From NCBI RefSeq assembly GCF_000745835.1, contig NZ_JQKB01000003.1, positions 1-64,000 on the forward strand: a stretch of 64,000 nucleotides of DNA, given 5' to 3'. The translations under genes were made by a program, and so were the position numbers. Of the stretch, positions 28,921 through 56,021 are shown piece after piece. The first letter of the stretch is position 1. Every line of letters starts with the position of its first letter. Below the pieces are notes generated by a model. The model did not search any database. It saw only the letters and a program-made list of their open reading frames with translations, and was not told where the DNA came from. This DNA is from Belnapia moabensis DSM 16746. GTDB taxonomy: Bacteria; Pseudomonadota; Alphaproteobacteria; Acetobacterales; Acetobacteraceae.

Positions 28921-29025
28921 CGAACAAACTCCGATCAGGTGGAATCACCTGATCGGAGCAATTTGCTCGATGCAACAAAGGTCAGAGCGCTTGTCGTGAG
29001 CCAAGGCGAACGGAAAGCGCTTTAG
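28921..29025 (-). repeat. Composite two-hairpin repeat, copy A
   Basis: Read on the minus strand, this element begins with TAAAGCGCTT, where TAA is the stop of the DppC-type gene. A hairpin follows (AGCGCTT and AAGCGCT around GTTCGCCTTGGCTCACG), then a spacer CTTTGTTGCATC. The second part is GAGCAAATTG and a perfect 13-pair hairpin CTCCGATCAGGTG-ATTC-CACCTGATCGGAG, closed by TTTGTTC, which pairs with GAGCAAA. Copy B at 55916-56021 has the same plan. The rest of the 300-base gap between the histidine kinase and this element shows no gene. Confidence 0.75.
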
Positions 29026-29879
29026 CGCCGCTCGCCGCGCGGGTCGAGCGCGTCGCGGAGGCCGTCGCCCATCAGGTTGAAGGCGAGCACGACGAGGAAG
29101 ATGGCGAGGCCGGGGAAGATGGCCAGCCAAGGCGCCTGGGTCAGGAAGCGCTGGGCGCTGTTCAGCATGCTGCCCCAGGAGGGGGCGGGCGGCTGCTGGC
29201 CGAGGCCGAGGAAGCTCAGCGAGGCCTCGGCGATGATGGCCTCGGCGATGGAGAGCGTCGCCTGCACCAGCAGGGGCGGGATGATGTTCGGCAGGACATG
29301 GACGAGGCCGAGGCGCCAGGGCGGGTTGCCCAGCGCACGGGCGGCCTCGACCCAGTCGGTGGCGCGGGCGTCGAGGGCCATGCCGCGCGCCAGGCGGACG
29401 AAGATGGGCGAGGCGGTGATGGCGATGGCGAGCATCGCGTTCTCGAGCGCGGGGCCCAAGAATGCGGCGAGGGCGATGGCGAGGATGAGGAAGGGGACGG
29501 AGAGCATGGCGTCGGCGATGCGGGCGATCAGCGCATCGACCCAGCCGCCGGCGAGGCCGGCGAGCAGGCCGATCGGCACGCCGATCAGCAAGGCGACGGA
29601 GACGGAGAGGACGCCAGCGGCCATCGAGGCGCGGGCGCCGTAGAGCACCCGCGCCAGCACGTCGCGGCCGTTCTCGTCGGTGCCGAACCAGTGGGCGGCG
29701 GAGGGAGGCTTGCGGATCGCCGTCCAGGAGGTCTGCAAGGGGTCGGCGGGGGAGAGCCAGGGGGCCAGGAGGGCGGCGAGGATGAAGAGCACCACGACGA
29801 GGAGGCCGAAGACGGCGAGGCGGTGGCGGAGGAAGCGGCGGAGCGCGCGGCGCGCCGGGCTGTCGGCGGTGGCGCTCAT
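29022..29879 (-). CDS. Dipeptide/oligopeptide-type ABC permease (DppC family)
   Basis: The 285-residue membrane protein has the DppC layout: a short basic N-terminus, a long first helix (LAVFGLLVVVLFILAALLAPWL), the periplasmic loop ending HWFGTDENGRDVLARVLYGAR, then five further helices with the ATPase-contact EAARALGNPPWRLGLVHVLPN. It forms the channel with the DppB-type protein encoded just upstream (four-base overlap). Its stop codon lies in the two-hairpin repeat copy A. It is the last gene of a five-gene operon; the substrate is set by the upstream binding protein. Confidence 0.92.
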   Translation of the reverse strand: MSATADSPARRALRRFLRHRLAVFGLLVVVLFILAALLAPWLSPADPLQTSWTAIRKPPSAAHWFGTDENGRDVLARVLYGARASMAAGVLSVSVALLIGVPIGLLAGLAGGWVDALIARIADAMLSVPFLILAIALAAFLGPALENAMLAIAITASPIFVRLARGMALDARATDWVEAARALGNPPWRLGLVHVLPNIIPPLLVQATLSIAEAIIAEASLSFLGLGQQPPAPSWGSMLNSAQRFLTQAPWLAIFPGLAIFLVVLAFNLMGDGLRDALDPRGERR

Positions 29880-30823
29880 GCTGTGCGCAGGCGTGGGTTG
29901 ACGGCCATGTAGAGCAGGTCGGCGATGAGGGAGAGGGCGGTGAAGATCAGCGCGGTCGCCATCACCACGCCCTGCACCACGGGGTAGTCGCGGTTGAAGA
30001 CGGCATCGACGATCAGCTTGCCGAAGCCGGGGATGGTGAAGATCTGCTCGGTCAGCACCGCGCCGGCGAGCAGCCGGCCGAATTCGATGGTGCCGAGCGT
30101 GACCACGGGGATCAGCGCGTTGCGGAGCGCGTGGCGGCCGACGACGGCGCGCTCCCCGAGGCCCTTGGCGCGGGCGGTGCGGACATAGTCCTGGCCGAGC
30201 GCGCCGAGCATCGCCGCGCGGGTGTGGCGCATCAGCACGCCGGCGATGCCGGAGCCGAGCACGAAGGCGGGCATGATCGTCGTCGCCAGGCTTTGCAGCG
30301 GGTCCTCGGTCAGGGGCACGTAGCCGGAGGGAGGGAGCCAGCCGAGCTGCACGGAGAAAAGCAGGATCATCATGATGCCGAGCCAGAAGTTCGGCGTCGA
30401 GATGCCGAAGAGGGCGACGGCGTTGACCAGCCAGTCGGTCGGGCGGTCGCGGCGCACGGCGGAGAGCACGCCGGCGGGGATGCCGATGGCGAGGGCGATG
30501 AGAAAGGCCATCACCGCGAGCTGGAAGGTGACGGGGAGCTTCTCGAGGATGAGCTTCGCCACCGGCTCGCGGATGCGCCAGGAGAAGCCGAAATCGCCCT
30601 GCACGGCGCGGGTGATCCAGTGAAGGTATTGCTCGGGCAGGGGACGGTCGAGGAAGAGCTCGGCGCGGATCTGCGCCAGCACCTGCGGGTCGCCGCGCTC
30701 CTCGCCGGCGAGGATCAGCGCCGGATCGCCGGGCATCAGCTGCTGCAGGCCGAAGATCAGCACGGAGAGGATGAGCAGCGTCGGGACGATCTGGCCGAGG
30801 CGGCGGAGAAGCCAGGGGAGCAT
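29876..30823 (-). CDS. Dipeptide/oligopeptide-type ABC permease (DppB family)
   Basis: The 315-residue membrane protein begins with the DppB hallmark LRRLGQIVPTLLILSVLIFGLQQLMPGDPA and has the conserved YVRTARAKGLGERAVVGRHALRNALIPVVT cytoplasmic loop and the VLTEQIFTIPGFGKLIVDA segment. It is the first permease of the operon and overlaps the DppC gene by four bases. A 119-base gap holding a strong hairpin separates it from the binding-protein gene, so its expression may be lower than that of the receptor. Confidence 0.92.
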   Translation of the reverse strand: MLPWLLRRLGQIVPTLLILSVLIFGLQQLMPGDPALILAGEERGDPQVLAQIRAELFLDRPLPEQYLHWITRAVQGDFGFSWRIREPVAKLILEKLPVTFQLAVMAFLIALAIGIPAGVLSAVRRDRPTDWLVNAVALFGISTPNFWLGIMMILLFSVQLGWLPPSGYVPLTEDPLQSLATTIMPAFVLGSGIAGVLMRHTRAAMLGALGQDYVRTARAKGLGERAVVGRHALRNALIPVVTLGTIEFGRLLAGAVLTEQIFTIPGFGKLIVDAVFNRDYPVVQGVVMATALIFTALSLIADLLYMAVNPRLRTA

Positions 30824-30853
30824 TTAGCGTCCTGCCCCTGGAGATCGTGGGCT

Positions 30854-30884
30854 CGGCCCGCGCCTGGCGTGGATGAGCGGGCCG
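30854..30884 (-). other. Hairpin between the peptide-binding protein and DppB genes
   Basis: CGGCCCGC (30854-30861) and GCGGGCCG (30877-30884) form a perfect eight-pair GC stem. It stands in the only large gap of an otherwise tightly packed operon, right after the receptor gene. Such a stem commonly protects the receptor mRNA or attenuates the permease genes; no T-run follows. Confidence 0.4.
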
Positions 30885-30942
30885 CGGGCGGCCAGGGCTG
30901 ATGACACGCGGGCGAAGGCCGCAGGGGGGCGGAAGCGCGGCA

Positions 30943-32444
30943 TCAGTTCAGCCGCAGGCCTTGCGGGCGGATCAAGCCGTCGGCGACGGGGACGAAGCCG
31001 CTGAGGCGGGCGGTGTGGGCGACGATGTTCTTGCGGTGCCAGAGATAGACGCGGCTGCGGTCCTGGCGGAGCGCGATCTCGAAGATGCGGGCGTAGAGGG
31101 CGCGGCGGGCGGCGGCATCGGTCTCGCTGCGGGCCGCATCCAGCAGGCGGTCGACTTCGGGGTTGGCGTATTTGCCGTCGTTCTGGCCGCCCTGGCTGTG
31201 GATGAAGGTCCAGGTATTGCCGTCCGGATCGACGCGGCCGGACCAGGCGACGAGGTAGGTCTCGAACTCGCCGCGGTTGGCGGCTTGCAGGCTGGAGGCG
31301 AATTCCATGGTGTTCAGCTTCAGGGCGAAGCCGGCCTCCTGCACCATGGCCTGGATCACCTCGCCGGCCTGGCGGAGGTCGGGGCTGTTCGGCACCGTCA
31401 TCTCGACCGGGACGGGCGCGGTGACGCCGGCCTCGCGGAGCAGGGCGCGGGCGCGAGCCACGTCGCGCGCTTCACGACGGAAGGTTGGGATGTGGAAGGG
31501 GTTCTCGGGCGGGATCGGCTGGGCGGTGGGGGTGTAGGCGCCTTCGTAGACGACCTGGTTCACCGCATCGCGGTCGATGGCGAGCTCGAAGGCGGCGCGG
31601 ATGCGCGGGTCGCGGGCGAAGGGTGTGTTGGCGCGTGGCCCGTTGCCGAGGTTGAAGACGATGCTCTGGTAGCCGAGCTCATCATAGGCGACGGCGCGGA
31701 GGCGGCGGTTGGCCTGGACGGCCTTCATGTCGTCCGGCTCGATGGTCTGCACCATCTCCAGCGCGCCGGATTGCAGGTTGGCGAGGCGGACGGTGCTGTC
31801 GGGGATCGGCAGGAAGGTGATGCGCGGGATGTGGATGCGCGCGGCGTCCCAGTAGCCCTCGAAGCGCTCGACTACGATGCGGTCCTGCGCGACGCGCTCG
31901 ACCAGGCGGTAGGGGCCGGCGCAGACGGGGGCGTTGCCGAAATTGCGGCCGGCGGCCTCGGCGGCCTTCGGGCTGACGACCATGCCGGCGCGGTCGGTGA
32001 GCTGGGAAAGGAAGGGGGAGGAGGCGACCTTCAGCCGGATGCGGATGGTGCGGGGGTCCACCACTTCGACCGATTCCATCGCGCCGATCTCGCTGCGGCG
32101 GAAGCTGCCGGACAGCGTCATGTGGCGGTTGAGGGAGTAGCGGACGGCCTCGGCGTCCATCGGCTCGCCGTCGTGGAAGCGGACGTTCTCGCGAAGGGTG
32201 ATGCGGAGCGTTTTTGGATCTTCCCAGGCGTAGCCGGTGGCGAGCTGGGGGACGATCTCAAGCTTCTCGTTGATGTCGAAGAGCTTGTCGCAGAGCGTGG
32301 CGAAGACGATGCGGCCGACGAAGGTGCGGGCGAGCGTCGGGTCGAGGATGTCGGGGTCCTCGCGGAGGCCGATGCGGAGGGTCTGCGCCTCGGCCGCGGC
32401 GGCAAGCGCCAGGGAGGCGAGGGCGGCGAGGAGGGTTCGGCGGA

Positions 32445-32448
<4 letters not shown>
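30943..32448 (-). CDS. Peptide/nickel-type ABC substrate-binding protein (SBP_bac_5)
   Basis: The 501-residue protein has a short Sec signal ([16 protein letters not shown], then [21 protein letters not shown]) and the SBP_bac_5 blocks [19 protein letters not shown] and [21 protein letters not shown]-like DVRYSLNRH region, [23 protein letters not shown], and later [19 protein letters not shown]. It binds peptides or other small solutes in the periplasm for the Dpp-type importer. Glutathione- and opine-type receptors look the same at this level, so the ligand is open. It overlaps the upstream DppF gene by four bases. Confidence 0.9.
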
Positions 32449-33484
<1,036 letters not shown>

Positions 33485-33488
<4 letters not shown>

Positions 33489-34456
33489 GCGGCGAGCACG
33501 CGGTCGAGCGGGGCGCGCCAGCAGGCGGTGGCGTGGCCGGGTTCCACCTCGGAGAGCGGGGGCTGGCGGGTGCAGTCGGCGCCGCGGAAGGGGCAGCGCG
33601 GGGCGAAGCGGCAGCCTTCGGGCGGGTGGAGGAGGTCGGGGACGGTGCCTTCGATGCTGGCGAGGCGGGTGGGGCCGCCCTCGATGCGGGGGGCGGCGCC
33701 GAGAAGGCCGACCGTGTAGGGATGCTCGGGGCGGGCGAAGAGGCGGGCGGCCGGCGCCCGCTCGGCGACGCGGCCGGCATACATGACGACGACATCGTCG
33801 GCATGGTCGGCGACGACGCCGAGGTCGTGGGTGATGAGCACCACGGCCGTGCCTGTCTCGCGCTTCAGCTCATCGAGGAGCGCGAGGATCTGTGCCTGCA
33901 CCGTCACGTCGAGGGCGGTGGTGGGCTCGTCGGCGATCAGCAGGCGCGGGCGGCAGGCGAGCGCCATGGCGATCATCACCCGCTGGCGCATGCCGCCCGA
34001 GAGCTGGTGCGGATATTGGCGGGCGCGGCGGGCGGCGTCGGGGATGCGGACGCGGTCGAGCAGTGCGACGGCGCGGTCGAATGCGGCGCGCTCGCCGAGG
34101 CGCTCGTGCAGGCGCAGCACCTCGGCCACCTGCTCGCCGGCGGTGAAGGCGGGGTTGAGGCTGGTCATCGGCTCCTGGAAGATCATGGCGATCTCCCGGC
34201 CGCGGCGGCGGCGCCATTCGGGCTGGGCGAGGGTCGCCATCTCGCGCCCGCGCAGGCGGATGGAGCCGGAGAGGCGGGCATTGGGGGGCAGCAGGCCCAT
34301 CGTCGCCAGGGCGGTGACGGACTTGCCGCAGCCGCTCTCGCCGACGATGGCGAGCGTCCGGCCGGCCTCGACGGCAAGGGAGACGCCGTCGACGGCCCGG
34401 AGCGGGCCGCGATCGGTGCGGAAGGTGATGGCGAGGTCCCGGAGCTCGAGGACCAT
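33485..34456 (-). CDS. Peptide-type ABC transporter ATPase (DppD family)
   Basis: The 323-residue ATPase begins the operon. It has Walker [27 protein letters not shown], signature [17 protein letters not shown], Walker [20 protein letters not shown] and the C-terminal [14 protein letters not shown] motif. ATPase genes standing before the receptor and permeases is a less common order than dppABCDF. No strong promoter is obvious in the 72-base gap that separates it from the CHAP-domain gene, so readthrough from that gene is possible. Confidence 0.92.
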
Positions 34457-34528
34457 CAGCCGTTGGGGCGGAAGCGCATCATCCCCTGGACAGTGACATG
34501 CCAGCGGATGGGCGCAAGACGCGATTGC

Positions 34529-35311
34529 CTACCGCGCGGTGCGGGCCTGGGCGGTTCGGAGCGGGGCGAGGCCTTGCAGGCTGTAGCCGCGCGAGGACTG
34601 GCCATCCGGCATTTCGGCGAGCTGCTCGTAGCGGGTGCTGCGGTGGAGCTGCATGCCGGCATAGGCGGTGCCGGTGTTCACGCCGTCATCCGGGCGGTTG
34701 TAGATGAAGCCATAGGTCGGGTAGACGCGGCCGAAGGCGTTGTCGTTGGTGCCGGACTGGACGCGGACCTCGGACCAGTCATTGGCGTCCGAGACGTCGA
34801 TCACGCTGATATTCTGCATGACCGAGCCGCGGCGGATGCCGGGGCCGCCCCAATTGGCGTGGTCGATGCGGACCTCGCGCGGGCCGACGATGTGGCGGAC
34901 CACGGCGACATGGCCACGGGTCATGCCGCCGGTCGCGCGGAAGGCCATGACTGAGCCCGGCTCCGGGCGCTGGCCGCGGTCGTAGAGGCCGGCGGCGTTG
35001 CTCCACCAGTCGCCGCCATTGCCGCTGACGTGCATGCCGGTGACGGCGCGGGCATAGGGGACGCAAGAGATGCCGCCGTTGGCGGCGGGGGTGGCGGCCA
35101 GCCGGGCCTGGCTGCGGCGGGCGGTTCGGAGGCGGCTCGTCGCCCGGTGGGACGTGGCATGGGCCTGCTGTCCTGCCGGGGCGGATTTGCGCACCGAATC
35201 CCGGCCATGGCGTTGCTGGGCCTGGTCCCGCGACGTGGCCAGAGCGTCGCCGGACGCTGCCATCGCACCGATCACCACGCACCACGCCACTGCCATCCGA
35301 TGCACCCGCAT
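34529..35311 (-). CDS. CHAP-domain secreted cysteine peptidase/amidase
   Basis: The 260-residue protein has a Sec signal (MAVAWCVVIGAMAASGDALA), a basic Ser/Gln/Arg-rich linker and a CHAP domain with the catalytic cysteine in NGGISCVPYARAVTG, the GNGGDWWSNAAGLYDRG block and the catalytic histidine in TRGHVAVVRHI, then IDHANWG. CHAP enzymes cut peptidoglycan cross-links or glutathionyl-type amides. The start follows a run of G that could act as a ribosome site; the in-frame frame upstream is not signal-like. It is exported, so it probably acts on the cell wall during growth or division. Confidence 0.87.
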   Translation of the reverse strand: MRVHRMAVAWCVVIGAMAASGDALATSRDQAQQRHGRDSVRKSAPAGQQAHATSHRATSRLRTARRSQARLAATPAANGGISCVPYARAVTGMHVSGNGGDWWSNAAGLYDRGQRPEPGSVMAFRATGGMTRGHVAVVRHIVGPREVRIDHANWGGPGIRRGSVMQNISVIDVSDANDWSEVRVQSGTNDNAFGRVYPTYGFIYNRPDDGVNTGTAYAGMQLHRSTRYEQLAEMPDGQSSRGYSLQGLAPLRTAQARTAR

Positions 35312-35550
35312 GCCAATCCCCCCCTGCGCGTGAACCGCTTCGCCTCGCGAGGCCGTAACCTCACGACACAAATGGGGTTATCCCGGTCGCAAATGTCTCG
35401 CGCAACCGGGAGCGGCGAAACATCGGGAAACTAGGGGTGATTTTCATGGAGAGGCGCCGATTACTGGTCCGTGAACGGACGATCGTCCTAGTCAGCGTCT
35501 CAGAAAGGAGCCTAGCCACAGTGTGACGGCCGAGAAGCCACAGTCGCGAC

Positions 35551-35580
35551 AAGGGCGGCGCCCCGGAAGGCGCCGCCCTT
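35551..35580 (-). terminator. GC hairpin terminator downstream of ridA
   Basis: AAGGGCGGCGCC (35551-35562) and GGCGCCGCCCTT (35569-35580) form a 12-pair stem with a six-base loop, about 18 bases past the ridA stop. The T-tract is weak (CTTGTCGCG). Confidence 0.6.
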
Positions 35581-35597
35581 GCACGAGTCCAAGCCGC

Positions 35598-35948
35598 TCA
35601 GCGGCAGGCGGTGACCATGATCTCGACCAGGTGGCGCGGGTCGGCCATGTTGGCCTCGACACAGGCGCGGGCCGGGCGGCCCGCATCGCCGAGCCACTCC
35701 ACCCAGACCTTGTTCATCGCGTCGCGGTCGGTGATGTGCTTCAGCCAGATCTGCGCGGTCAGCAGGCGGGTGGTGTCGGTGCCGTTGGCCTCGAGCGCCG
35801 CGGTGATCTTGGCGAGGACCTGCTTCGTCTGGCCGGTGACGTCGAGCGAAAGGTCGTCGGCGGTCATGCCGGCCAGGTAGACGAAATTGTGGTACTCGAC
35901 GGAACCTGAGAGAATCGTGTTGCTGCCCTGGCGGGTGATCTTCGACAT
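35598..35948 (-). CDS. RidA family protein (Rid/YjgF)
   Basis: The 116-residue protein matches the RidA fold, but with a diverged start: GSNTILSGSVEYHNFVYLAGMTADDLSLDVTGQTKQVL, and the later VWVEWLGDAGRPARACVEANMADPRHLVEIMVTA with the RxxxxV region that binds ligand. RidA proteins hydrolyse reactive enamines and imines from amino acid metabolism; the imine-binding Arg is seen in the ARACVE stretch. Not all RidA subfamilies are active deaminases. GGAGGGG precedes the ATG. A strong hairpin follows the gene. Confidence 0.85.
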   Translation of the reverse strand: MSKITRQGSNTILSGSVEYHNFVYLAGMTADDLSLDVTGQTKQVLAKITAALEANGTDTTRLLTAQIWLKHITDRDAMNKVWVEWLGDAGRPARACVEANMADPRHLVEIMVTACR

Positions 35949-36009
35949 CGGCTGCCCCTCCTTCAAGGAAGGGCCGTTCTAGGGCGCCGTTACATCAGCG
36001 ACAAGCCGC

Positions 36010-36984
36010 TCAGGCCACCGCATAGGTGCTGCCTGAGGCCGCCGCGCCGATCATCGTCTCGAAGACGGCGACGCCGTGGATCGCCTGCTCGGCCGGCAGC
36101 GGGTAGGCCGGGCCGCCGGCGACCGCGGCGGCGAAGGCCTCCAGCTCGGCGGCCTCGATATCGGTCTTGTCGAAGTCGCGGGCCCAGCCCTGGCCCTCGA
36201 CGGGGGTGAAGACGAGGCGGTCCTGGCCCTGCATCTCGAGATGGCCCTTGGTGCCGAAGAGGGCGACGCGCCAGTAGCGGGCGGTCAGCGAGAGCGTGGC
36301 GAAATTGCAGGTGGCGCCGGAGGCGAAGCGGGCGAGCATCGCGGTCGTGTCGTCGATATGCGGCGAGACCCGGGGGAAGGACTGCACGGTCACTTCGGCG
36401 ATGGGGCCCATCAGGTTGATCAGCATGTCGAGCATGTGGATGCCCATGGCGCCCATGCCGCCAAGCGGGCTCTCCTCGCGGTCGGCGCGCCACATGCCGG
36501 GCTTCCAGGCGAAGGCGCCGGGGCCGCTGATATGGCCCTCGGCGTGGAGGACGGTGCCGAGTTCGCCCTCGGCGAGCATGCGCTTCATCTCGAGCGTCGC
36601 GGGGAGGAAGCGGCGGTTATGGCCGAGGGCGAGGACGACGCCGGCCTGGCGGCAGGCGGCGACGCAGGCCTCGGCGCTCGCCTTGCTCAAGGTGAAGGGC
36701 TTCTCGACGAAGACATGCTTGCCGGCGGCGGCGGCGGCCATGACTTGGTCGGCATGCTGCTTGTGCGGGGTGGCCAGCGCCACGGCCTTCACCTCGGGGT
36801 CGGCGAGGACGGCCTCAAAGCTTGGGTGGAGGCGGATGCCCTGTTCGGCGGCCCAGGCTTCGGCCTTCGACAGCCTGCCGGTGGTGCCGGCGACGAAGCG
36901 GAGACCGGCGCCGTTCTTCCGTTGCACGCTCTCCACCAGGGTGCGGCCCCAGCGGCCCATGCCGACGATCGCGGTGTTCAACAT
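36010..36984 (-). CDS. Gfo/Idh/MocA family NAD(P)-dependent oxidoreductase
   Basis: The 324-residue protein has the Rossmann start NTAIVGMGRWGRTLVESVQ, the family block ALATPHKQHADQVMAAAAAGKHVFVEKPFTLS and the GHNRRFLP stretch, with a C-terminal alpha/beta domain that includes SPLGGMGAMGIHMLDML. Such enzymes oxidise or reduce sugars, inositols or related polyols; the substrate is unknown. It stands between RidA and the epoxide hydrolase-like gene on the same strand. A palindromic element lies in the gap behind its 5' end. Confidence 0.9.
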   Translation of the reverse strand: MLNTAIVGMGRWGRTLVESVQRKNGAGLRFVAGTTGRLSKAEAWAAEQGIRLHPSFEAVLADPEVKAVALATPHKQHADQVMAAAAAGKHVFVEKPFTLSKASAEACVAACRQAGVVLALGHNRRFLPATLEMKRMLAEGELGTVLHAEGHISGPGAFAWKPGMWRADREESPLGGMGAMGIHMLDMLINLMGPIAEVTVQSFPRVSPHIDDTTAMLARFASGATCNFATLSLTARYWRVALFGTKGHLEMQGQDRLVFTPVEGQGWARDFDKTDIEAAELEAFAAAVAGGPAYPLPAEQAIHGVAVFETMIGAAASGSTYAVA

Positions 36985-37013
36985 GATCAGCTGTCCTGCG
37001 TTTCGGCACGGAG

Positions 37014-37061
37014 ACTAATCCCGTTTTGGCGGGACTGTCGCCAGACCAAAACGGGATTAGT
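37014..37061. repeat. Long perfect inverted repeat in the gap upstream of the Gfo/Idh gene
   Basis: ACTAATCCCGTTTTGG (37014-37029) pairs perfectly with CCAAAACGGGATTAGT (37046-37061), 16 pairs around a 16-base centre that itself contains GGCG/CGCC. The gap is only about 95 bases, so the repeat fills half of it. It may terminate the epoxide hydrolase gene or be a REP-type element. No second copy was seen in the window. Confidence 0.6.
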
Positions 37062-37079
37062 ATTCATTGAGCCGGCGGT

Positions 37080-47687: not shown

Positions 47688-47774
47688 ATGCCGGGCTTCT
47701 TCGGCTATCGCGGCTGGGCGGTTGCCTTTCTCGTCCCGACCTTCATCCTGGCGGCCTTCGTTTTCTTCCGGTGA
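47688..47774 (+). CDS. Possible 28-residue hydrophobic peptide
   Basis: The frame PGFFGYRGWAVAFLVPTF-ILAAFVFFR is almost entirely hydrophobic and could be a single-span membrane peptide. It ends 11 bases before the lyase gene start and lies divergent to coxG. A weak GGGGGTGCGG precedes the ATG. It is only a candidate, as no homologue is recognised. Confidence 0.3.
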   Translation: MPGFFGYRGWAVAFLVPTFILAAFVFFR

Positions 47775-47785
47775 GGAAATCCCCC

Positions 47786-48721: not shown

Positions 48722-48733
48722 GGGGAGAGCACG

Positions 48734-49567
48734 ATGCGCACGGGCGTCTTCTACTTCCCGACCGAATACGGGATCGAGACCGGGGAGTTGGCACGGGCGC
48801 TGGAGGAGCGGGGGTTCGACTCGCTCTTCCTTTGCGAGCACACCCACATTCCCGTCAGCCGGCGTTCACCCTTTCCGGGCGGGGGTGAGCTGCCGAAGCG
48901 GTACAAGCATACGCATGATCCCTTCGTCGCGCTGAGCTTTGCCGCCGCCGCGACGAAAACCTTGCTGCTCGGCACCGGCGTCTGCCTGGTGCCGCAGCGG
49001 GACCCGATCATCACTGCCAAGTCGGTCGCCAGCCTCGACCGGCTCTCGGGCGGGCGCTTCGTCTTCGGCGTCGGCGGCGGGTGGAATGTCGAGGAGATGG
49101 AGAATCACGGCGCGCGCTATCCGACGCGCTTCAGGCTGATGGAGGAGCGCATCCGGGCGATGCAGGCGCTCTGGACGGAGGAGGAGGCGAGCTTCCATGG
49201 GGAGTTCGTCAACTTCGACCCGGTCTGGTGCTACCCGAAGCCGGTGCAGCGGCCGCATCCGCCGGTGCTGCTCGGCGGCGAGACGGATTACACGCTGAGG
49301 CGGGTCGCGGCATTCTGCCAGGGATGGTTCCCGCGGGCGGGGGGCGATTTCGACCCGAAGCTGGCGCGCGAGCGGCTGCGGCGGGTGGCGGAAGGGGCGG
49401 GCCGGGACCCTGCGAGCCTTTCCATTACCGTCTTCCGGGCGCCGCCGGAGGCCGGGAAGCTGGACGCCTACCGCGAGGCGGGGATCGAACGGGTGTTGCT
49501 GGAGGTGCCGGACCTCGACCGCGATGGCATCCTCCGCCGTCTCGACGAGCTGGCGCCGCTGGTCTGA
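48734..49567 (+). CDS. LLM class F420/FMN-dependent oxidoreductase
   Basis: The 277-residue protein has the luciferase-like pattern of TIGR03619-type oxidoreductases: RTGVFYFPTEYGI, ALEERGFDSLFLCEHTHIP, LLGTGVCLVPQRDPIITAKSVASLDRLSGGRFVFGVGGGWN and RPHPPVLLGG. Such enzymes use F420 or FMN to oxidise alcohols or other organics. The substrate is unknown. GGGGAGAG lies before the ATG, twelve bases after the lyase stop, so the two are probably co-transcribed. Confidence 0.87.
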   Translation: MRTGVFYFPTEYGIETGELARALEERGFDSLFLCEHTHIPVSRRSPFPGGGELPKRYKHTHDPFVALSFAAAATKTLLLGTGVCLVPQRDPIITAKSVASLDRLSGGRFVFGVGGGWNVEEMENHGARYPTRFRLMEERIRAMQALWTEEEASFHGEFVNFDPVWCYPKPVQRPHPPVLLGGETDYTLRRVAAFCQGWFPRAGGDFDPKLARERLRRVAEGAGRDPASLSITVFRAPPEAGKLDAYREAGIERVLLEVPDLDRDGILRRLDELAPLV

Positions 49568-49601
49568 GGGAACCAGGGCGAGGGCGCGGCATTCGCCCCA
49601 T

Positions 49602-49847
49602 ATGCCCTCGCTCGACCCTGAAGAAGGCGATGCGATCCGCCAGGCCCTCGGCCTCGATCGCGCCGCCAGGCCCTATCGCAACCACTACCCCGCCCCGGGC
49701 GACGACCCGGTGGCCGGGCGGCTTGTCGAGCGCGGGATGATGCAGCGCGGCGCGACGACGCCGGCGGGCCTGGTGCTGTTCCAGGTGACGGAGGCGGGCG
49801 CACGGCAGGTCGGCGCGCGGCTGCCGGAGGCCGAGGCCGGGCGGTGA
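49602..49847 (+). CDS. Small hypothetical protein
   Basis: The 81-residue product (PSLDPEEGDAIRQALGLDRAARPYRN, then GAGDD-like PAPGDDPVAGRLVERGMMQRG and an ending VTEAGARQVGARLPEAE) is acidic at the start, with a possible winged-helix-like end. No family is recognised. The ATG follows a CGCCCCAT context with no clear ribosome site. It lies between the LLM oxidoreductase and NIPSNAP genes on the same strand and may belong to that transcript. Confidence 0.5.
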   Translation: MPSLDPEEGDAIRQALGLDRAARPYRNHYPAPGDDPVAGRLVERGMMQRGATTPAGLVLFQVTEAGARQVGARLPEAEAGR

Positions 49848-49912
49848 GGCCGGATTGACCGCGGCGCCCGGACATGCGGCACTCCGCCCATCCTGACGGG
49901 AGGGAAGAGCCC

Positions 49913-50593
49913 ATGTTCCTCGAGCAACGCATCTACACCATGCATCCGGGCAAGCTGCCCGCCTGGCTGGCGCTCTACCGCGATATCGGCGGCCCGGCCT
50001 CCTCCCGCACGCTGACGCCGCTGATCGGCATGTTCACGGTCGAATTCGGCCAGATCAACCGGGTGCTCTTCGTCCGCGGCTTCGACGACATCGACGAGCG
50101 CGAGCGCGGCATGGGCCGGCGGGATGCCGATCCGGAGTGGCAGCGCTTCCTGAAGGAGGGGCGCGACAGCGGCGCGCTGATGGCGCAGGAGGCGAAGCTC
50201 CTCAAGACCGTGCCCTTCTCGCCGCTGCAGAAGGTCGGCCAGCCCTTCGAGCGCAAGGTCGAGGGTGGGGAGATGTGGGTCGATCATCGGACCTACGACT
50301 TCCACCCCGGCAAGGCGCAGGCCTGGATCGACGCCTATCGCGACCTCGGCAAGCCGGTGCAGGACCGGCTGCTCGGCCAGCTGCTGTGGTTCGCTGTGAC
50401 CGAATGCGGGCCGATCAATCAGGCCGTCTTCGCCTGGGCCTATAGCTCGCTCGGCGACCGCGACAAGCGGCGGGCGGCGATGGCGGCCGATCCCGGCTGG
50501 GCGGAGTTCCAGAAGGCGACGGCGCCGCTCGGCGCGCTGAAGCAGCAGACGACGATGGTGCTGAAGCCTACCCCCTTCTCCCCGATCCGCTGA
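49913..50593 (+). CDS. NIPSNAP family protein with two repeats
   Basis: The 226-residue protein contains two NIPSNAP-type ferredoxin-like domains, the first beginning LEQRIYTMHPGKLPAWLALYRDIG and the second YDFHPGKAQAWIDAYRDLG. NIPSNAP domains are small dimeric barrels with unclear roles in bacteria. The ATG has a GGGAGGGAAG upstream. It is followed by an amino acid receptor gene ten bases later. Confidence 0.87.
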   Translation: MFLEQRIYTMHPGKLPAWLALYRDIGGPASSRTLTPLIGMFTVEFGQINRVLFVRGFDDIDERERGMGRRDADPEWQRFLKEGRDSGALMAQEAKLLKTVPFSPLQKVGQPFERKVEGGEMWVDHRTYDFHPGKAQAWIDAYRDLGKPVQDRLLGQLLWFAVTECGPINQAVFAWAYSSLGDRDKRRAAMAADPGWAEFQKATAPLGALKQQTTMVLKPTPFSPIR

Positions 50594-50603
50594 GGCAGGA
50601 CTC

Positions 50604-51617
50604 ATGTTGAAGAGGATGCTGGCCGGCGCGGCCCTCGCGCTTGGCCTCACCGGCGCTGCCCAGGCGGGCCAGACCTTCGACGCGGTCAAGGCCCGCGGCG
50701 TGCTCAACTGCGGCGTCAATGTCGGCATTGCCGGTTTCTCCTTGCCCGATAGCCAGGGCGTCTGGCGCGGAATGGATGCCGATCTCTGCCGCGGCCTCGC
50801 CGCTGCGCTGTTCGGCGACCCGGCCAAGGTGCGCTTCGTGCCGCTGACCGCGGTGCAGCGCTTCACCGCGCTGCAATCGGGCGAGATCGACGTGCTGATC
50901 CGCCAGACGACGCTGACCATGACGCGCGACACCTCGCTCGGCCTGCGCATGGTCGCCGTCAACCTCTATGACGGCCATGGCTTCATGGTGCGGAAGGACG
51001 CGGGCGTTACCGAGTCGAAGGGGATGGATGGGATGACCATCTGCCTCTCGCCGGGAACGACGAACGAGCTGGTGACGACGGACTGGTTCCGCGCCAACAA
51101 CCTGCGCTTCACGCCACTGCTGCAGGAGCGGATGCAGGACAATGCGACGGCGCTGCAATCCGGCCGGTGCGATGCCATCGGCACGGATGCGACTCAGCTC
51201 GCGGCGCTCCGCAGCCAGTTCACCAATCCGGCCAATTTCGTGATCCTGCCGGAGCGGTTCAGCAAGGAGCCCTATGGGCCGGTGGTGCGACGCGACGACC
51301 AGGAATGGTTCGACGTCGTGCGCTGGACGCTCTCGGCGCTCATCCAGGCGGAGGAGCTCGGTGTCAACAGCGGCAACCTCGAGCAGATGAAGGGCAGCCC
51401 CAACCCGGAGGTCCGGCGGCTGCTCGGCGTCGACCCGGTGCTGGGCAACTCGCTGAAGCTCGATCCGGCCTGGGCCTACAACGCCATCAAGGCGATCGGG
51501 AATTACGGCGAGCTGTTCGACCGCAATCTCGGGCCGCAGACGCCGATCGGGCTGGAGCGGGGGCTGAACCGGCTCTGGACCAATGGCGGGCTGATGTATT
51601 CCTGGCCGATGCGGTAG
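50604..51617 (+). CDS. General L-amino acid ABC receptor-like protein (AapJ/BztA type)
   Basis: The 337-residue protein has a Sec signal (LAGAALALGLTGAAQA) and the AapJ-type type II periplasmic fold: KARGVLNCGVNVGIAGFSLPDSQGVWRGMDADLCRGLAAAL and QSGEIDVLIRQTTLTMTRDT. AapJ delivers a broad range of L-amino acids to AapQMP, but those permease and ATPase genes are not next to it here. A tRNA gene follows instead. The receptor may serve a transporter encoded elsewhere or be a solitary receptor. Confidence 0.9.
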   Translation: MLKRMLAGAALALGLTGAAQAGQTFDAVKARGVLNCGVNVGIAGFSLPDSQGVWRGMDADLCRGLAAALFGDPAKVRFVPLTAVQRFTALQSGEIDVLIRQTTLTMTRDTSLGLRMVAVNLYDGHGFMVRKDAGVTESKGMDGMTICLSPGTTNELVTTDWFRANNLRFTPLLQERMQDNATALQSGRCDAIGTDATQLAALRSQFTNPANFVILPERFSKEPYGPVVRRDDQEWFDVVRWTLSALIQAEELGVNSGNLEQMKGSPNPEVRRLLGVDPVLGNSLKLDPAWAYNAIKAIGNYGELFDRNLGPQTPIGLERGLNRLWTNGGLMYSWPMR

Positions 51618-51672
51618 CCGCGCCTCTCCTGTTGCCGTGGGGCGGGGGACGGCCTAGTTTCCCGCCCCAAGT

Positions 51673-51748
<76 letters not shown>

Positions 51749-51767
51749 CCTGCAACAAGGGTGCCTC

Positions 51768-52079
51768 ATGCCGCAGCTTGCCCGCATCTTCGTCATGCCG
51801 CGTTCCGCCATGCAGTCCGGGCGGGGGCGCTCTCAGGGCTGGACCCTGGCCTATGAGCCGGGCGAGCGGCAGCGGCTCGACCCGCTGATGGGCTGGGCCG
51901 GCTCGGGCGACACCAATGCGCAGGTGAGCCTCAATTTCGACAGCAAGGAGGATGCTATCGCCTATGCCGAGGCGAACGGCATCCCCTACGAGGTCGAGGA
52001 GCCGAAGCCGGTCCGCATCAAGGCGAAGGTCTATGCGGACAACTTCCGCTTCGGGCGTCCGGAGAACTGGACGCACTGA
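51768..52079 (+). CDS. NDUFS4-like complex I accessory subunit (ETC_C1 family)
   Basis: The 103-residue protein matches the ETC complex I subunit conserved region family: PQLARIFVMPRSAMQSGRGRSQGWTLAYEP, LMGWAGSGDTNAQVSLNF and KVYADNFRFGRPENWTH. It is the bacterial counterpart of the 18-kDa NDUFS4 subunit that stabilises the N-module of NADH:quinone oxidoreductase. It stands away from the nuo operon, between two tRNA genes, which is common in alphaproteobacteria. The product is cytoplasmic or peripheral at the inner membrane. Confidence 0.9.
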   Translation: MPQLARIFVMPRSAMQSGRGRSQGWTLAYEPGERQRLDPLMGWAGSGDTNAQVSLNFDSKEDAIAYAEANGIPYEVEEPKPVRIKAKVYADNFRFGRPENWTH

Positions 52080-52087
52080 ACCCGATT

Positions 52088-52164
52088 GCGCCCGTAGCTC
52101 AGCTGGATAGAGCACGCGCCTTCTAAGCGTGTGGTCGTGGGTTCGAATCCCGCCGGGCGCGCCA
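52088..52164 (+). tRNA. tRNA-Arg (TCT)
   Basis: Acceptor GCGCCCG/CGGGCGC, D-arm TAGCTCAGCTGGATAGAGCA, anticodon loop CTTCTAA (anticodon TCT) and T-arm GTGGGTTCGAATCCCGC are visible. CCA is encoded at the 3' end. Confidence 0.96.
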
Positions 52165-52167
52165 CCC

Positions 52168-53022
52168 TTACAGCAGCTCCACCGACCAGCCGGCGCGGAA
52201 TTCGCCGCCCGGGGGGAGGATGATTACGCCGGACTTCGCGGCGAACTCGCCATCCCAGCCGAGCGGGCTGGCGAAGCCTTGCCAGGGCTCGATGCAGAGG
52301 AAGTCGCCCCCGGGCTTCGACCAGAGGCCGAGTTGCGGGAAGCCGGTGAAGGCGAAACGGAGGACGGGACCGTCCTCGGCGCGGTAGTCGAGGCGGCGGC
52401 TGCGGGGCTGGTCGAGGATCATCGCATCGGCTTCGAAGAGCGCGGAGGCGAGGGCGAGGTGGCGGCCCGCGATGGGGCTCGGCTGGGGCTCGGGCAGCAA
52501 CAGGCCGTCCTGCAACCGGCGGATGGGGGCAGGCTCGTCTGTTTCGAAGGTAAGGGTGTGGGGGCGACCCTCGGCGCCGGGGAGCGGCCAGCGGAAGGCG
52601 GGATGGGCACCGAGCGAGGCGGGCAGGGGCTCGGGGCCGGGGTTGGCCAGGCGGTAGTCCGCCGAGAGGCACCCGCCTGCGACGGCGTAGTGGATGTCGA
52701 GGGCGAAGGCGAAGGGATAGGCGGTGCGGCTCGCCTCGTCGTCGGTGAGGCGGAAGGTGCAGCGGCTGGGCGCCTGGTCGATCAGGGTGAAGCTTCGGTC
52801 GCGGGCGAAGCCGTGCTGACGCATGGGGTAGCGGCGGCCGGCATGGTTGAATCCATCGCCCGAGAGGCGGCCGACGATGGGGAAGAGCACCGGCGCATGG
52901 CGCGGCCAGGCGGGGCCGGCATCCCAGAGGAAGTCGCGACCGGCGGCATCCTGCAATCGGCAAAGCTCGGCGCCCTCGGGCTTGATGGCGGCAGTGAGCG
53001 CGTCGCTGGCGATCTGGATCAT
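52168..53022 (-). CDS. Aldose 1-epimerase family protein
   Basis: The 284-residue protein has the aldose epimerase beta-sandwich blocks: AELCRLQDAAGRDFLWDAGPAWPRHAPVLFPIVGRLSG, YPMRQHGFARD with the catalytic His region, ASLGAHPAFRWPL and FLCIEPWQGFASP. It interconverts alpha and beta anomers of a hexose or a related sugar. The ATG overlaps the Lrp-type gene by four bases. A frame upstream is the shadow of that gene. It is not near other sugar genes. Confidence 0.88.
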   Translation of the reverse strand: MIQIASDALTAAIKPEGAELCRLQDAAGRDFLWDAGPAWPRHAPVLFPIVGRLSGDGFNHAGRRYPMRQHGFARDRSFTLIDQAPSRCTFRLTDDEASRTAYPFAFALDIHYAVAGGCLSADYRLANPGPEPLPASLGAHPAFRWPLPGAEGRPHTLTFETDEPAPIRRLQDGLLLPEPQPSPIAGRHLALASALFEADAMILDQPRSRRLDYRAEDGPVLRFAFTGFPQLGLWSKPGGDFLCIEPWQGFASPLGWDGEFAAKSGVIILPPGGEFRAGWSVELL

Positions 53023-53471
53023 GCGGTCCCCCGGATGACGGTGCGGATGGCGAAGCTCGACTGGATGCGGGCGACGCCCGGCATGCGCGACAGCGCCTCC
53101 TTGTGGATGCGTTCGTAATCGGCGGCGTCGCGCGCTTCGACACGCAGGAGGTAGTCGGCGATGCCGGTCATCAGGTAGCACTCCCGCACCTCGGGGCAAC
53201 GGCGCACCGCCTCCTCGAAGCGCCTCAGGTGCTCGTCGGTCTGGCGGTCGAGCGTGATCTGCACGATCACCACGACCAGGTCGCGCGGCGCGGCCTCCTC
53301 GATCAGCGCGGTATAGCCGCGGATGATGCCGCGATGCTCCAGCAGGCGGACGCGGCGGAGGCAGGCGGAGGGGGAGAGGGAGACGGCCTCGGCGAGGTCG
53401 GCATTGCTCATGCGGCCGTCGGCGCGGAGCAGGCGGAGGATGGCGCGGTCGGTGTCATCCAGGGTTTGCAT
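53019..53471 (-). CDS. Lrp/AsnC family transcription regulator
   Basis: The 150-residue protein has the AsnC winged helix (LDDTDRAILRLLRADGRMSNADLAEAVSLSPSACLRRVRLLEHRGII) and the RAM ligand-binding domain (VRECYLMTGIADYLLRVEARDAADYERI). It is divergent from dadA, the usual arrangement for a regulator of D-amino acid dehydrogenase, and the 129-base gap between them is a likely binding site. The ligand is probably an amino acid. Its stop overlaps the aldose epimerase start by four bases. Confidence 0.92.
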   Translation of the reverse strand: MQTLDDTDRAILRLLRADGRMSNADLAEAVSLSPSACLRRVRLLEHRGIIRGYTALIEEAAPRDLVVVIVQITLDRQTDEHLRRFEEAVRRCPEVRECYLMTGIADYLLRVEARDAADYERIHKEALSRMPGVARIQSSFAIRTVIRGTA

Positions 53472-53600
53472 CGAATTATCTACGAATTGGCCGCAGATCA
53501 TGCGCCATTCCGGCTCCGCATGGCAAAGGCTGCGAGGGTCTGGCGTGAAATTCGCATACGCCGGTGCGTAGTCTCGGTGGATAAATAGGCGGAGGCGGCG
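53472..53600. promoter_or_regulatory. Shared regulatory gap between the Lrp-type gene and dadA
   Basis: The gap carries an AT-rich block CGAATTATCTACGAATT with two CGAATT half-sites near the regulator start. It is the natural place for both divergent promoters and for binding of the Lrp-type regulator. The half-sites are a pattern only. Confidence 0.45.
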
Positions 53601-54860
53601 ATGCGCGTTGTGGTGCTTGGCAGCGGCGTGGTCGGGGTGACCAGCGCCTGGTATCTCTCGCGGGCCGGCCATCAGGTGACGGTGATCGACCGCCAGCCGG
53701 CCGCCGGCATGGAGACGAGCTTCGCCAATGCGGGGCAGGTCTCGCCGGGCTATTCGGCGCCCTGGGCCGGCCCTGGCATCCCCGTCAAGGCGCTGAAATG
53801 GCTGATGATGCGGCACCGGCCGCTGGTCTTCTGGCCGCAGGCGAAGGGCGGGCTCTATCCCTGGCTGGCGCGGATGCTCGCCAACTGCACCGAGGATGCC
53901 TATGCGACCAACAAGGCGCGCATGGTCCGCCTCGCCGAGTACAGCCGCGACTGCCTGCGCGACCTGCGCGACGAGACCGGCATCGCCTATGACCAGCGGA
54001 TGCAGGGCACCTTGCAGCTCTTCCGCACGCAGAAGCAGCTCGATGCCGTCGGCGGCGATACGGCGGTGCTGGATGCCTTCCAGGTGCCCTATGAGCTGCT
54101 CGACCCGAAGGGCTGCGTCGGCGCGGAGCCGGCGCTCGGGCTGGTCGAGGGGAAATTCGTCGGCGGGCTGCGCCTGCCGGGCGACGAGACGGGCGATGCG
54201 CATGTCTTCACCCAGCGGCTGGCCGGGATGGCGGCGGCGGCGGGGGTGGAGTTCCGCCAGGGCGTGACCATCCAGAGGATCGAGAGCGAGGGTGACCGGG
54301 TCACCGGCGTCGTGACCGACCAGGGCAGGGTCACGGCGGATGCCTATGTGGTGGCGCTGGGGAGCTATTCGACGGCGCTGCTGCGGCCGCTCGGCGTCTT
54401 CGTGCCGGTCTATCCGGTGAAGGGCTATTCGCTGACCCTGCCGGTCACCGAGGAGGCGGGGGCGCCGGTCTCCACCGTCATGGACGAGACCTACAAGGTG
54501 GCGATCACCCGACTCGGCGACCGCATCCGCGTCGGCGGGACGGCGGAACTGGCGGGGTTCAACCTCAAGCTCCGCGGGCCGCGGCGGGAGACGCTGGCGC
54601 ATTCGGTGGGCGACCTCTTCCCGCGCGGGGGCGATATAGCCCAGGCGAAATTCTGGACCGGCCTCAGGCCGATGACGCCGGACGGGACGCCGGTGGTCGG
54701 GCCGACGCGGTACCGCAACCTGCACCTCAATACCGGGCATGGGACGCTGGGCTGGACCATGGCCTGCGGCAGCGGGCGGCTGTTGGCGGACCTCGTCACC
54801 GGGCGGCGGCCGGAGATCGACTCCGAGGATCTGGCGCTGACGCGCTACGCGGCCGCTTGA
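53601..54860 (+). CDS. dadA: D-amino acid dehydrogenase DadA
   Basis: The 419-residue protein is an FAD-dependent dehydrogenase of the DAO family. It starts [30 protein letters not shown] (FAD-binding) and has the DadA stretch [31 protein letters not shown], and the late [49 protein letters not shown]. DadA oxidises D-alanine and other D-amino acids to keto acids and feeds electrons to quinones. It is divergent from an Lrp-type gene; dadX (racemase) is not nearby. GGCGGAGG precedes the ATG. Confidence 0.94.
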
Positions 54861-54907
54861 CGGGCCTGCCGGAGGCGGCCTGACTGGCCGCTTCCCGGGA
54901 GGCTTTC

Positions 54908-55918
54908 ATGGAATACCGTGCACTCGGCCGCAGCGGCCTCAGCGTCAGCCGGCTCTGCCTCGGCACCATGATGTTTGGCGGACCGACCGATGCGGCGACC
55001 GGCGCGCGGCTGATCGCGCGGGCTGCCGAGGCGGGGATCAACTTCCTCGATACGGCGGATGCCTATAACGGCGGGCGGTCGGAGGAGGTGGTGGGGCAGG
55101 CCATCGCCGCGCGCCGGCATGACTGGGTGGTGGCGACGAAGATCGCCAACAAGGTCGGGAAGGGCCCGAACGAGGGCGGGCTGTCGCGCAAATGGGTCAT
55201 GCAGGGGGCGGAGGCCTGCCTGCGCCGGCTCGGCACCGACTTCATCGACATCCTCTACCTCCACAAGGAGGATCGTGCGACGCCGCTGGAGACGACGGTG
55301 CGCGCCATGGCCGACCTGGTGCGGGCGGGGAAGATCCGGCATTTCGGCGTCTCCAACTACCGCTCCTGGCGGATCGCGGAGATCTGCCGGCTTTGCGACG
55401 AGGCGGGGATCGACCGGCCGGTGGTGTCGCAGCCCTATTACAACGCGATGAACCGGCAGCCGGAGGTGGAGCAGCTTCCCGTCGCGGCGCATTACGGGCT
55501 CGGCGTCTTTCCCTATTCGCCGCTGGCGCGCGGGGTGCTGACGGCGAAGTACCGGCCGGGCGCGGAGCCCGAGGCGGGCAGCCGGGCGGCGCGGCAGGAC
55601 AAGCGGATGCTGGAGACGGAGCTTCGCCCTGAGTCGCTCGAGATCGCGCAGGTGATCCGCGAGCATGCGCAGCGCGCCGGCACCACGCCGGTGCATTTCG
55701 CCATCGGCTGGGTGCTGAACAACCGGCTCGTCACCGGCTGCATTCTCGGGCCGCGGACGGAGGCGCATCTGGAGGACTATCTGGCGGCGCTCGACTACCG
55801 GTTCACCGTGGAGGACGAGGCGCTGGTCGACCGGCTGGTACCGGCGGGGCATCCCTCGACGCCGGGGTACAACGATCCGCAATATCCGATCGACGGGCGG
55901 GTGGCGGTGGCCGGCTAG
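54908..55918 (+). CDS. Aldo/keto reductase
   Basis: The 336-residue TIM-barrel protein has the AKR catalytic pattern: YRALGRSGLSVSRLCLGTMMFGG, FLDTADAYNGGRSEEVVGQAI with Asp and Tyr, WVVATKIANKVG with Lys, LYLHKEDRATP with His, and the cofactor region GVSNYRSW. It reduces aldehydes or ketones with NADPH, or the reverse. It lies 47 bases after dadA with GGGAGG upstream of the ATG. Its TAG stop is the first three bases of the two-hairpin repeat copy B. Confidence 0.9.
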   Translation: MEYRALGRSGLSVSRLCLGTMMFGGPTDAATGARLIARAAEAGINFLDTADAYNGGRSEEVVGQAIAARRHDWVVATKIANKVGKGPNEGGLSRKWVMQGAEACLRRLGTDFIDILYLHKEDRATPLETTVRAMADLVRAGKIRHFGVSNYRSWRIAEICRLCDEAGIDRPVVSQPYYNAMNRQPEVEQLPVAAHYGLGVFPYSPLARGVLTAKYRPGAEPEAGSRAARQDKRMLETELRPESLEIAQVIREHAQRAGTTPVHFAIGWVLNNRLVTGCILGPRTEAHLEDYLAALDYRFTVEDEALVDRLVPAGHPSTPGYNDPQYPIDGRVAVAG

Positions 55919-56021
55919 AGCGGGCTCTGTTCGCACCGGCTCACGGAGCCCGCTCTAGCTTGTTGTTCTGGCGAGCAAATTACTCCGATCAGATGATTCC
56001 ATCCGATTCGAGTTTGCTCTA
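55916..56021 (+). repeat. Composite two-hairpin repeat, copy B
   Basis: Hairpin 1 is TAGAGCGGGCTC (55916-55927) pairing with GAGCCCGCTCTA (55946-55957) around GTTCGCACCGGCTCACG-type loop sequence. Hairpin 2 is GAGCAAATTACTCCGATCAGATG, then ATTC, then CATCCGATTCGAGTTTGCTC; it is less perfect than in copy A, but its outer stem GAGCAAA/TTTGCTC pairs fully. TAG at the left end is the stop of the aldo/keto reductase; the CTA near the right end is the stop of the DsbA-like gene on the other strand. Confidence 0.75.

What the first reader, a model, noticed from the sequence alone, without database searches (positions are those of the whole stretch)
28921..56021. Two-hairpin element in two copies, with compensatory stem changes and a link to stop codons
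Copies at 28921-29025 (minus) and 55916-56021 (plus) share order and spacing. Hairpin 1 has a conserved loop (GTTCGC, then GGCTCACG), while the stem differs on both sides: AGCGCTT/AAGCGCT in copy A and AGCGGGCTC/GAGCCCGCT in copy B. The spacer CTT(T)GTTG leads to hairpin 2 (GAGCAAATT, CTCCGATCAG, ATTC loop). Changing both arms of a stem while keeping the loop is a sign of selection for structure. In each copy the stop codon of the adjacent gene (TAA or TAG) is fused directly to the first stem (TA-A/G-AGCG). It is a candidate REP/BIME-like mobile or regulatory element in this lineage.
Basis: partly seen in the sequence, partly recalled or inferred. Interest (0 to 1): 0.72.

Follow-up and report, generated by a model that had tools for sequence, protein, structure and literature searches.

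The report
Mobile hairpin element at stop codons
Two short hairpin sequences noticed in a bacterium of the genus Belnapia are copies of a small jumping DNA element that goes into the stop codons at gene ends and rebuilds them on insertion; elements of this general type are known, but how they move was listed as unresolved.

Summary
Copies A (28918-29025, minus) and B (55915-56022, plus) belong to a repeat with 29 matches below E 0.001, some partial, in a Belnapia-type genome; a decayed third lies at 18457-18565. Stems covary. The link to stop codons is a target-site effect: copy B's site is empty in four sister species as a single CTAG. The element inserts at the TA of CTAG, and its own terminal G and C rebuild TAG on both sides. 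Of 101 copies with clear coding phase on both sides, 78 lie between convergent genes and 87 have at least one flanking stop codon in a terminal tetramer. It is not REP/BIME: the one Y1 transposase found is IS200-type. Anatomy matches the alphaproteobacterial CIR repeats. Ten IS630-family copies in the genus, one intact in this genome, share GAGC ends and a (C/T)TAG target, so the best reading is a CIR-type miniature transposon moved by IS630-type transposase. Against this, four element-bearing genomes elsewhere in the class show no IS630 domain, and IS and element do not co-occur strictly. Transposition and methylation are untested.

The parts
55915..56022 (+). copy B: whole element with both terminal CTAG sites; element proper (102 bp) from G 55918 to C 56019
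   Evidence: empty orthologous sites with one CTAG
55915..55918 (+). left CTAG; TAG 55916-55918 is the stop codon of the aldo/keto reductase gene
55915..55958 (+). copy B hairpin 1 (CTAGAGCGGGCTC...GAGCCCGCTCTAG)
55973..56019 (+). copy B hairpin 2 (GAGCAAATT...GTTTGCTC)
55995..55999 (+). GATTC (GANTC, CcrM-type site) at the tip of copy B hairpin 2
56019..56022 (+). right CTAG; CTA 56019-56021 is the stop codon (TAG on the minus strand) of the DsbA-like gene
28918..29025 (-). copy A: whole element; left tetramer CTAA (29025-29022), right end decayed (CGAG 28922-28919)
28942..28946 (-). GATTC at the tip of copy A hairpin 2
29022..29879 (-). gene ending in copy A: ABC transporter permease, OppC type (stop TAA in the terminal tetramer)
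54908..55918 (+). gene ending in the left CTAG of copy B: aldo/keto reductase family
56019..56759 (-). gene ending in the right CTAG of copy B: DsbA-like thioredoxin domain
18457..18565 (-). third, decayed copy in the window (terminal CTAGs and GANTC lost)

Best explanation
A non-autonomous miniature transposon of about 102 bp plus duplicated TA, of the alphaproteobacterial CIR type: two hairpin arms, a T-rich linker, and a GANTC site at the tip of the second arm. An IS630/Tc1-mariner-type transposase, such as the intact one in this genome (L243), most likely recognises the ends GAGCGGTTTCC... and GAGCAAACTCCGATCAG..., and inserts the element at a TA with duplication of the TA, preferring C-TA-G. 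Because the element begins with G and ends with C, CTAG is rebuilt at both ends. A TAG stop codon, or two convergent TAG stops overlapping in one CTAG, therefore survives, and insertions that persist are concentrated at gene ends. Shown by sequence: empty and filled sites, TA target, rebuilt stop codons, gene context, covariation, the GANTC position, similar ends on ISs. Inferred: that this IS moves it, that the transposase reads the shared ends, that CcrM methylates the loop, and any function of the hairpins.
For: Empty sites: copy B's flanks match four sister genomes (G001, G002, G005, G006) with a 4-base overlap, CTAG, and no element; alignment, where G004 also has the CTAG without element. 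Of 14 own-genome loci tested with joined flanks, base-level alignment gives CTAG empty sites at three: copy B, L040 (G003, G004) and L036 (G005, G006; left flank diverged); L033's empty site is CTAA in four genomes. Ends: 73 of 135 left and 69 of 135 right tetramers are CTAG, against 253 CTAG per Mb in flanks. TA rather than 4-bp duplication: in 28 copies from other families, inner bases are G in 28 of 28 and C in 26 of 28 while outer bases vary (C 18 of 28 left, G 23 of 28 right, where tetramers were picked with a YTAR pattern), and 3 of 10 ISs are flanked TTAG/CTAG, the other 7 CTAG/CTAG. Gene context: 78 of 101 convergent, 87 of 101 with at least one and 33 with both stop codons in the terminal tetramers. 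Controls: by the definition, 102 of 134 elements against 17 of 55 other CTAGs in the same loci have an in-frame stop on at least one side, both sides 33 against 1; in the window 2 of 15 other CTAGs. Convergent: 3 of 25 classifiable other CTAGs (55 looked at) and 169 of 2312 classifiable random window positions (3000 drawn). IS link: transposase of 316 aa, NF033545 196.1 bits against a cut-off of 100; of 30 fetched IS630 loci, 11 show a facing TA-flanked GAGC-like pair at 1030-1075 bp, one of them (L252) spurious. In the ten, beyond GAGC, one end matches the element's left end at 5-9 of 12 positions and the other its right end at 6-10; chance of 7 or more is 0.025 and 0.010 per end. GANTC at one fixed place in 73 of 135 and in hairpin 2 of 21 of 28 class-wide copies.
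Against: No association of element and transposase relatives among the 22 family genomes examined in both searches: 11 of 17 with the element and 3 of 5 without have one at E<=1e-20. G115, G231, G199 and G070 carry 13, 12, 11 and 3 matches (at most 13 scored each) but no DDE_3 match. The pairing of ends is not clean: the IS end resembling the element's right end resembles its left end as well or nearly so (6-9 of 12). In three other families the local IS ends match one local element's ends at 6 and 6 (G086; 8 and 6 crossed), 6 and 1 (G140) and 5 and 4 (G312) of 12. ISs with similar ends also occur in genomes without the element (G009, G015, G016, G042). IS copies themselves are not clearly at stop codons. 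Copy A has no clean empty site: relatives lack it, but the downstream DNA is too different. Sites without the element carry TGA, not a TA, at L031, L035, L040 in G005 and G006, and copy B in G003 and G007. In 13 assessable class-wide copies the convergent bias is weak, 6 of 13.
Confidence: 0.78

Rival explanations
1. Same element and same CTAG site, but moved by another enzyme (a host recombinase, an IS5-type transposase with 4-bp YTAR duplication, or an extinct element), the IS630 resemblance being limited to generic GAGC ends.
For: Element-bearing genomes without detectable IS630; no strict co-occurrence; the two IS ends do not map cleanly onto the two element ends; in G140 and G312 the IS ends match little beyond GAGC. 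Copy B's empty sites alone fit a 4-bp CTAG duplication as well as a TA one.
Against: Outer and inner terminal bases behave as TA duplication; L033's empty site is CTAA while the filled left end is CTAG; variant tetramers are not shared between the two ends beyond chance (44 against 40.7 concordant), so non-CTAG targets are at least not copied as four bases; ends match at 5-10 of 12 positions beyond GAGC in Belnapia.
Confidence: 0.17
2. REP/BIME-like element moved by a RAYT (tyrosine) transposase.
For: Hairpins at gene ends, many copies, a tetranucleotide at the foot of each hairpin; some mosaic and solo-hairpin forms (L010, L026, L014).
Against: One Y1 transposase found in the genome, IS200-type and below the RAYT cut-off, and no model match on its contig C24 among the 54 listed; units of about 105 bp; filled and empty sites as for a cut-and-paste insertion.
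Confidence: 0.02
3. A fixed regulatory RNA or bidirectional terminator at gene ends, spread by descent, not a mobile element.
For: Strong covariation; excess of G-U over A-C cells in stems, 219 against 160, though the alignments favour the modelled strand; 78 of 101 between convergent genes.
Against: Presence/absence between sister species with intact empty CTAG sites; no terminator-like site found at either window copy by a simple scan; the G-U excess is small. A secondary role after insertion is not excluded.
Confidence: 0.03

Closest known systems
CIR elements (Caulobacter CcrM-associated intergenic repeats, Chen and Shapiro 2003; original not held, described in PMC2229807, passages read)
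   Same: About 110 bp, two inverted repeats as two arms with a linker, GANTC at the loop of one arm, TA at both termini, intergenic, in alphaproteobacteria.
   Different: That review lists no terminal inverted repeat, an unknown target-site duplication and an unresolved mode of mobility. Here empty sites, a TA target, rebuilt stop codons, an imperfect terminal repeat (10 of 20 identical) and ISs with similar ends are seen. Sequence kinship to the Caulobacter or Brucella CIRs was not compared.
IS630 family (Tc1/mariner) insertion sequences and their MITEs, e.g. RUP of pneumococcus (PMC2229807, passages read)
   Same: TA target duplicated on insertion; preference for TA in CTAG as in IS630 of Shigella (title of Tenzen and Ohtsubo 1991 seen in the reference list of PMC2170065); ends shared with IS630 copies in the genus.
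   Different: Two independent hairpin arms instead of one end-to-end hairpin; terminal inverted repeats imperfect; GANTC loop; strong bias to stop codons.
REP / BIME
   Same: Palindromic, many copies, at gene ends, tetranucleotide at hairpin foot.
   Different: Size, tag (CTAG), filled/empty sites, no RAYT found in this genome.
RIME (Rhizobium-specific intergenic mosaic elements, Osteras 1995; not held; seen only as a title and in passages of PMC1273637 and PMC2573895)
   Same: Intergenic palindromic mosaic repeats in alphaproteobacteria.
   Different: No sequence compared; some copies here have hairpin 1 replaced by another palindrome (L010, L152).

Membership tests
CIR elements | Dispersed repeat of about 110 bp in many copies | tested here: met
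   29 matches at E<0.001 in the own genome, some partial; matches in 28 of 36 family genomes
CIR elements | Two inverted repeats as two arms joined by a linker | tested here: met
CIR elements | GANTC (CcrM site) at the loop of one arm | tested here: met
   Fixed place in 73 of 135 copies, anywhere in 83 of 135; hairpin 2 of 21 of 28 class-wide copies; absent in the rest
CIR elements | TA at both termini | tested here: met
   Most copies; left T 87% and A 76%, right T 86% and A 84% of 135
CIR elements | Methylation of the site by CcrM | not tested
   GANTC is the most depleted of 16 palindromes of its form in the window (0.23 of expected), which proves nothing; the ccrM gene was not searched
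CIR elements | Sequence homology to CIR1-CIR4 of Caulobacter/Brucella | not testable with these tools
IS630-type MITE | TA target duplicated on insertion | tested here: met
   copy B alone does not tell TA from CTAG duplication
IS630-type MITE | Ends shared with an autonomous IS630 in the same genome | tested here: inconclusive
   L243 in the own genome: GAGC plus 8 and 7 of 12 positions, but its right end fits the element's left end equally well (8 of 12)
IS630-type MITE | Moved in trans by that transposase | not testable with these tools
   needs a mobilisation assay
REP/BIME | RAYT transposase in the genome | tested here: not met
   (own genome only)
REP/BIME | 20-40 bp palindromes tagged GTAG or CGTC (from the title and abstract start of PMC3733652, search listing) | tested here: not met
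   tag CTAG; element about 105 bp
Rfam families | Match to a curated RNA family | tested here: not met
   (only tRNAs in the window; one chance match below gathering score in four element loci)

The most novel reading that the evidence does not exclude
The CIR repeats of alphaproteobacteria are one class-wide family of stop-codon-rebuilding IS630-type miniature transposons. Their G...C termini make insertion into TAG, and into overlapping convergent stops sharing one CTAG, harmless to both genes and pull the two genes apart. The GANTC at the tip of the second arm lets the CcrM methylation cycle gate when they move or are read, as Dam methylation does for IS10 (recalled).
Probability: 0.25. Interest if true: 0.75.

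Novelty: new member of a known kind. Interest (0 to 1): 0.52.

Why it matters
CIR-type repeats were described in 2003, and their mode of movement was listed as unresolved in a 2007 review (PMC2229807, passages). Filled and empty sites, a rule for the target and a candidate transposase make that directly testable. The rule also explains a puzzling fact, hairpins fused to stop codons, without invoking regulation: an element whose end restores TAG can sit in the stop codons of two genes at once.

Tried and rejected
REP/BIME with RAYT: rejected for this genome. Four-base YTAR duplication (IS5 type): considered after because the HSP overlap is 4 bases; set aside, not excluded, because inner bases are constant while outer ones vary, 3 of 10 ISs are TTAG/CTAG and L033's empty site is CTAA. 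Rfam: nothing. Terminator or promoter patterns at both copies: none. Strand test G-U against A-C: weak. A clean left-to-left, right-to-right match of element and IS ends: not borne out (crossed matches). Paper searches: Belnapia with repeat element, no paper; MITE/Alphaproteobacteria/GANTC/CTAG, 3 papers, none on this by the listing. One search had an off-by-one at the right end and is superseded. L024/L038 first looked like chance in coding DNA; the model scores it 74.4 bits and it was kept.

Rows dropped: 2 of 137 model matches (second, overlapping or weak matches in L122 and L119) before all counts of 135; one match seen twice (L201/L215) entered once. The 135 are the better-scoring copies of a longer, capped list: 15 own, 114 from six sister genomes, 6 from G023 of the same family. 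Some are orthologous, so they are not independent. One search used eight hand-picked ISs; one search repeated the end comparison over all 30 fetched IS loci and adds L241 and the poorer L244 (5 and 6 of 12).
Full report
The two copies are present as described. The left copy sits at the 3' end of an OppC-type permease gene. The right copy lies between convergent aldo/keto reductase and DsbA-like genes, whose stop codons are both inside its terminal CTAGs. Both fold well beyond shuffles. A model built from ten own-genome copies finds 54 matches at E<=1 in the 6.73-Mb genome, 29 of them below 0.001 (some partial), including a decayed third copy in the window at 18457-18565.

Host: contig lengths of sister genomes G002, G004, G005 and G006 equal those of Belnapia rosea, B. 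mucosa, Belnapia sp. F-4-1 and B. arida in the exact-pattern scan, so the window is from a Belnapia or very near kin (Alphaproteobacteria; NCBI places the genus in Roseomonadaceae). That identity is inferred, not stated by a tool.

Distribution: 28 of 36 genomes of the family and 0 of 24 others in a first sample; 18 of 289 in a class-wide sample, 17 of them outside the family in 13 family codes, several multi-copy. The 28 copies fetched from outside the family, of a longer list, broadly keep the plan of two hairpins between TA-containing ends, with variations: left tetramer CTAG 17 and TTAG 5, right CTAG 19, CTAA 4 and TTAG 2, GANTC in hairpin 2 in 21. Some have GATC or GCGC instead of GCTC at the right end.

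Structure: covariation is strong in two sets, 23 of 34 pairs in 77 sequences and 19 of 34 in 60, 0 of 500 shuffles as high, and the slid controls are much lower; the alignments were fitted to the model. G-U cells exceed A-C cells only modestly, 219 to 160, so a strand-specific RNA role is not established.

Mobility: copy B's flanks align to four sister genomes with a 4-base overlap at CTAG and nothing between; one search shows CTAG directly followed by the downstream gene in G001, G002, G005 and G006, CTAG plus extra bases in G004, and TGA without element in G003 and G007. Joined flanks of 14 own copies searched in eight genomes of the genus (capped list) gave junction-spanning matches at several loci. 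At base level CTAG empty sites are seen at copy B, L040 and L036, and CTAA at L033. L035, L036 and L040 are filled in one sister (G006, G001, G001) and empty in others. Other sites were less clean: L031 and L035 empty sites carry TGA, as does L040 in G005 and G006; L029, L007 and L038 align poorly; L037 is partly deleted in G005; copy A has no clean junction; L032 gave one weak junction-spanning match (70% identity), and L027 and L030 none in the listed rows.

Target rule: left and right tetramers are CTAG in 73 and 69 of 135 copies, although CTAG occurs at 253 per Mb in flanks (2571 expected from base composition). Inner bases (G, C) are nearly constant in class-wide copies while outer ones vary, so the duplicated unit is most likely TA and the G and C belong to the element. 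Insertion into C-TA-G thus gives CTAG at both ends and restores TAG. By a GC-phase test, 78 of 101 copies with clear phase on both sides are between convergent genes, 22 between genes in the same direction and 1 divergent; 87 have at least one and 33 both stop codons in the tetramers. Over the whole set of 135, without the phase threshold, the in-frame stops are TAG 121, TAA 19, TGA 2. Controls: other CTAGs in the same loci are in-frame stops in 17 of 55 (both sides 1), against 102 of 134 (both sides 33) for elements by the same definition, and 2 of 15 in the window; convergent settings are 3 of 25 classifiable other CTAGs and 169 of 2312 classifiable random window positions. In 13 assessable class-wide copies the bias is weaker: 6 convergent, 8 with at least one stop. 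Whether the bias is targeting or survival is open; IS copies show no clear bias to stops, which favours survival.

Mover: DDE_3 (IS630-type) genes are in 7 of 8 genomes of the genus. Among 30 fetched loci, ten have facing TA-flanked GAGC-type ends about 1050 bp apart, 7 with CTAG/CTAG and 3 with TTAG/CTAG flanks (an eleventh pair is spurious). The own genome has an intact one, 316 aa, IS630 equivalog. Beyond GAGC, one end matches the element's left end at 5-9 of 12 positions and the other its right end at 6-10, but the latter also fits the element's left end at 6-9. Four ISs of other end types match at 2-5. ISs in four genomes without the element (G009, G015, G016, G042) match at 5-10, so the likeness tracks the IS subgroup. 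Against the link stand the lack of co-occurrence and element-bearing genomes without DDE_3, which need lost or undetected transposases.

Literature: PMC2229807 (passages) describes CIR as about 110 bp, two arms and a linker, GANTC at a loop, TA termini, no terminal repeat, target duplication unknown, mobility unresolved. PMC10969869 (passages) calls CIR strictly intergenic. Chen and Shapiro 2003 and Osteras 1995 were not held. PMC2170065 (passages) covers TA duplication by IS630-family ISY100 and cites a paper whose title states IS630's preference for CTAG. Seven paper searches showed, in titles and abstract starts, nothing that states the stop-codon rule or an IS630 link for CIR; most subscription papers are not held, so this is no proof of absence.

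Noticed in passing
   Followed up: yes
L010 1499-1597 (-), L152 1001-1094 (+): Copies whose hairpin 1 is replaced by another perfect palindrome (GGAGCATGATC...GATCATGCTCC); flanking bases agree in the two species, so probably one old event. Suggests modular arms.
   Followed up: partly
L026 about 1501-1554; L014 about 471-512: Solo hairpin 1 and solo hairpin 2 forms in the own genome.
   Followed up: no
window: GANTC is the most depleted of 16 palindromes of the form NN-N-NN in the window (0.23 of the dinucleotide expectation), as might be expected in a CcrM lineage; TCNGA is next (0.32).
   Followed up: no
L119 1001-1207; G005:C1:2819983-2820946 (L201): Elements nested or close together: two overlapping matches in L119, and two copies within 1 kb in L201.
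   Followed up: no
G000 contig ends (e.g. C9, C18, C89, C55): Many IS630 fragments lie at contig ends of the own assembly, so full ISs are probably under-counted there.
   Followed up: no
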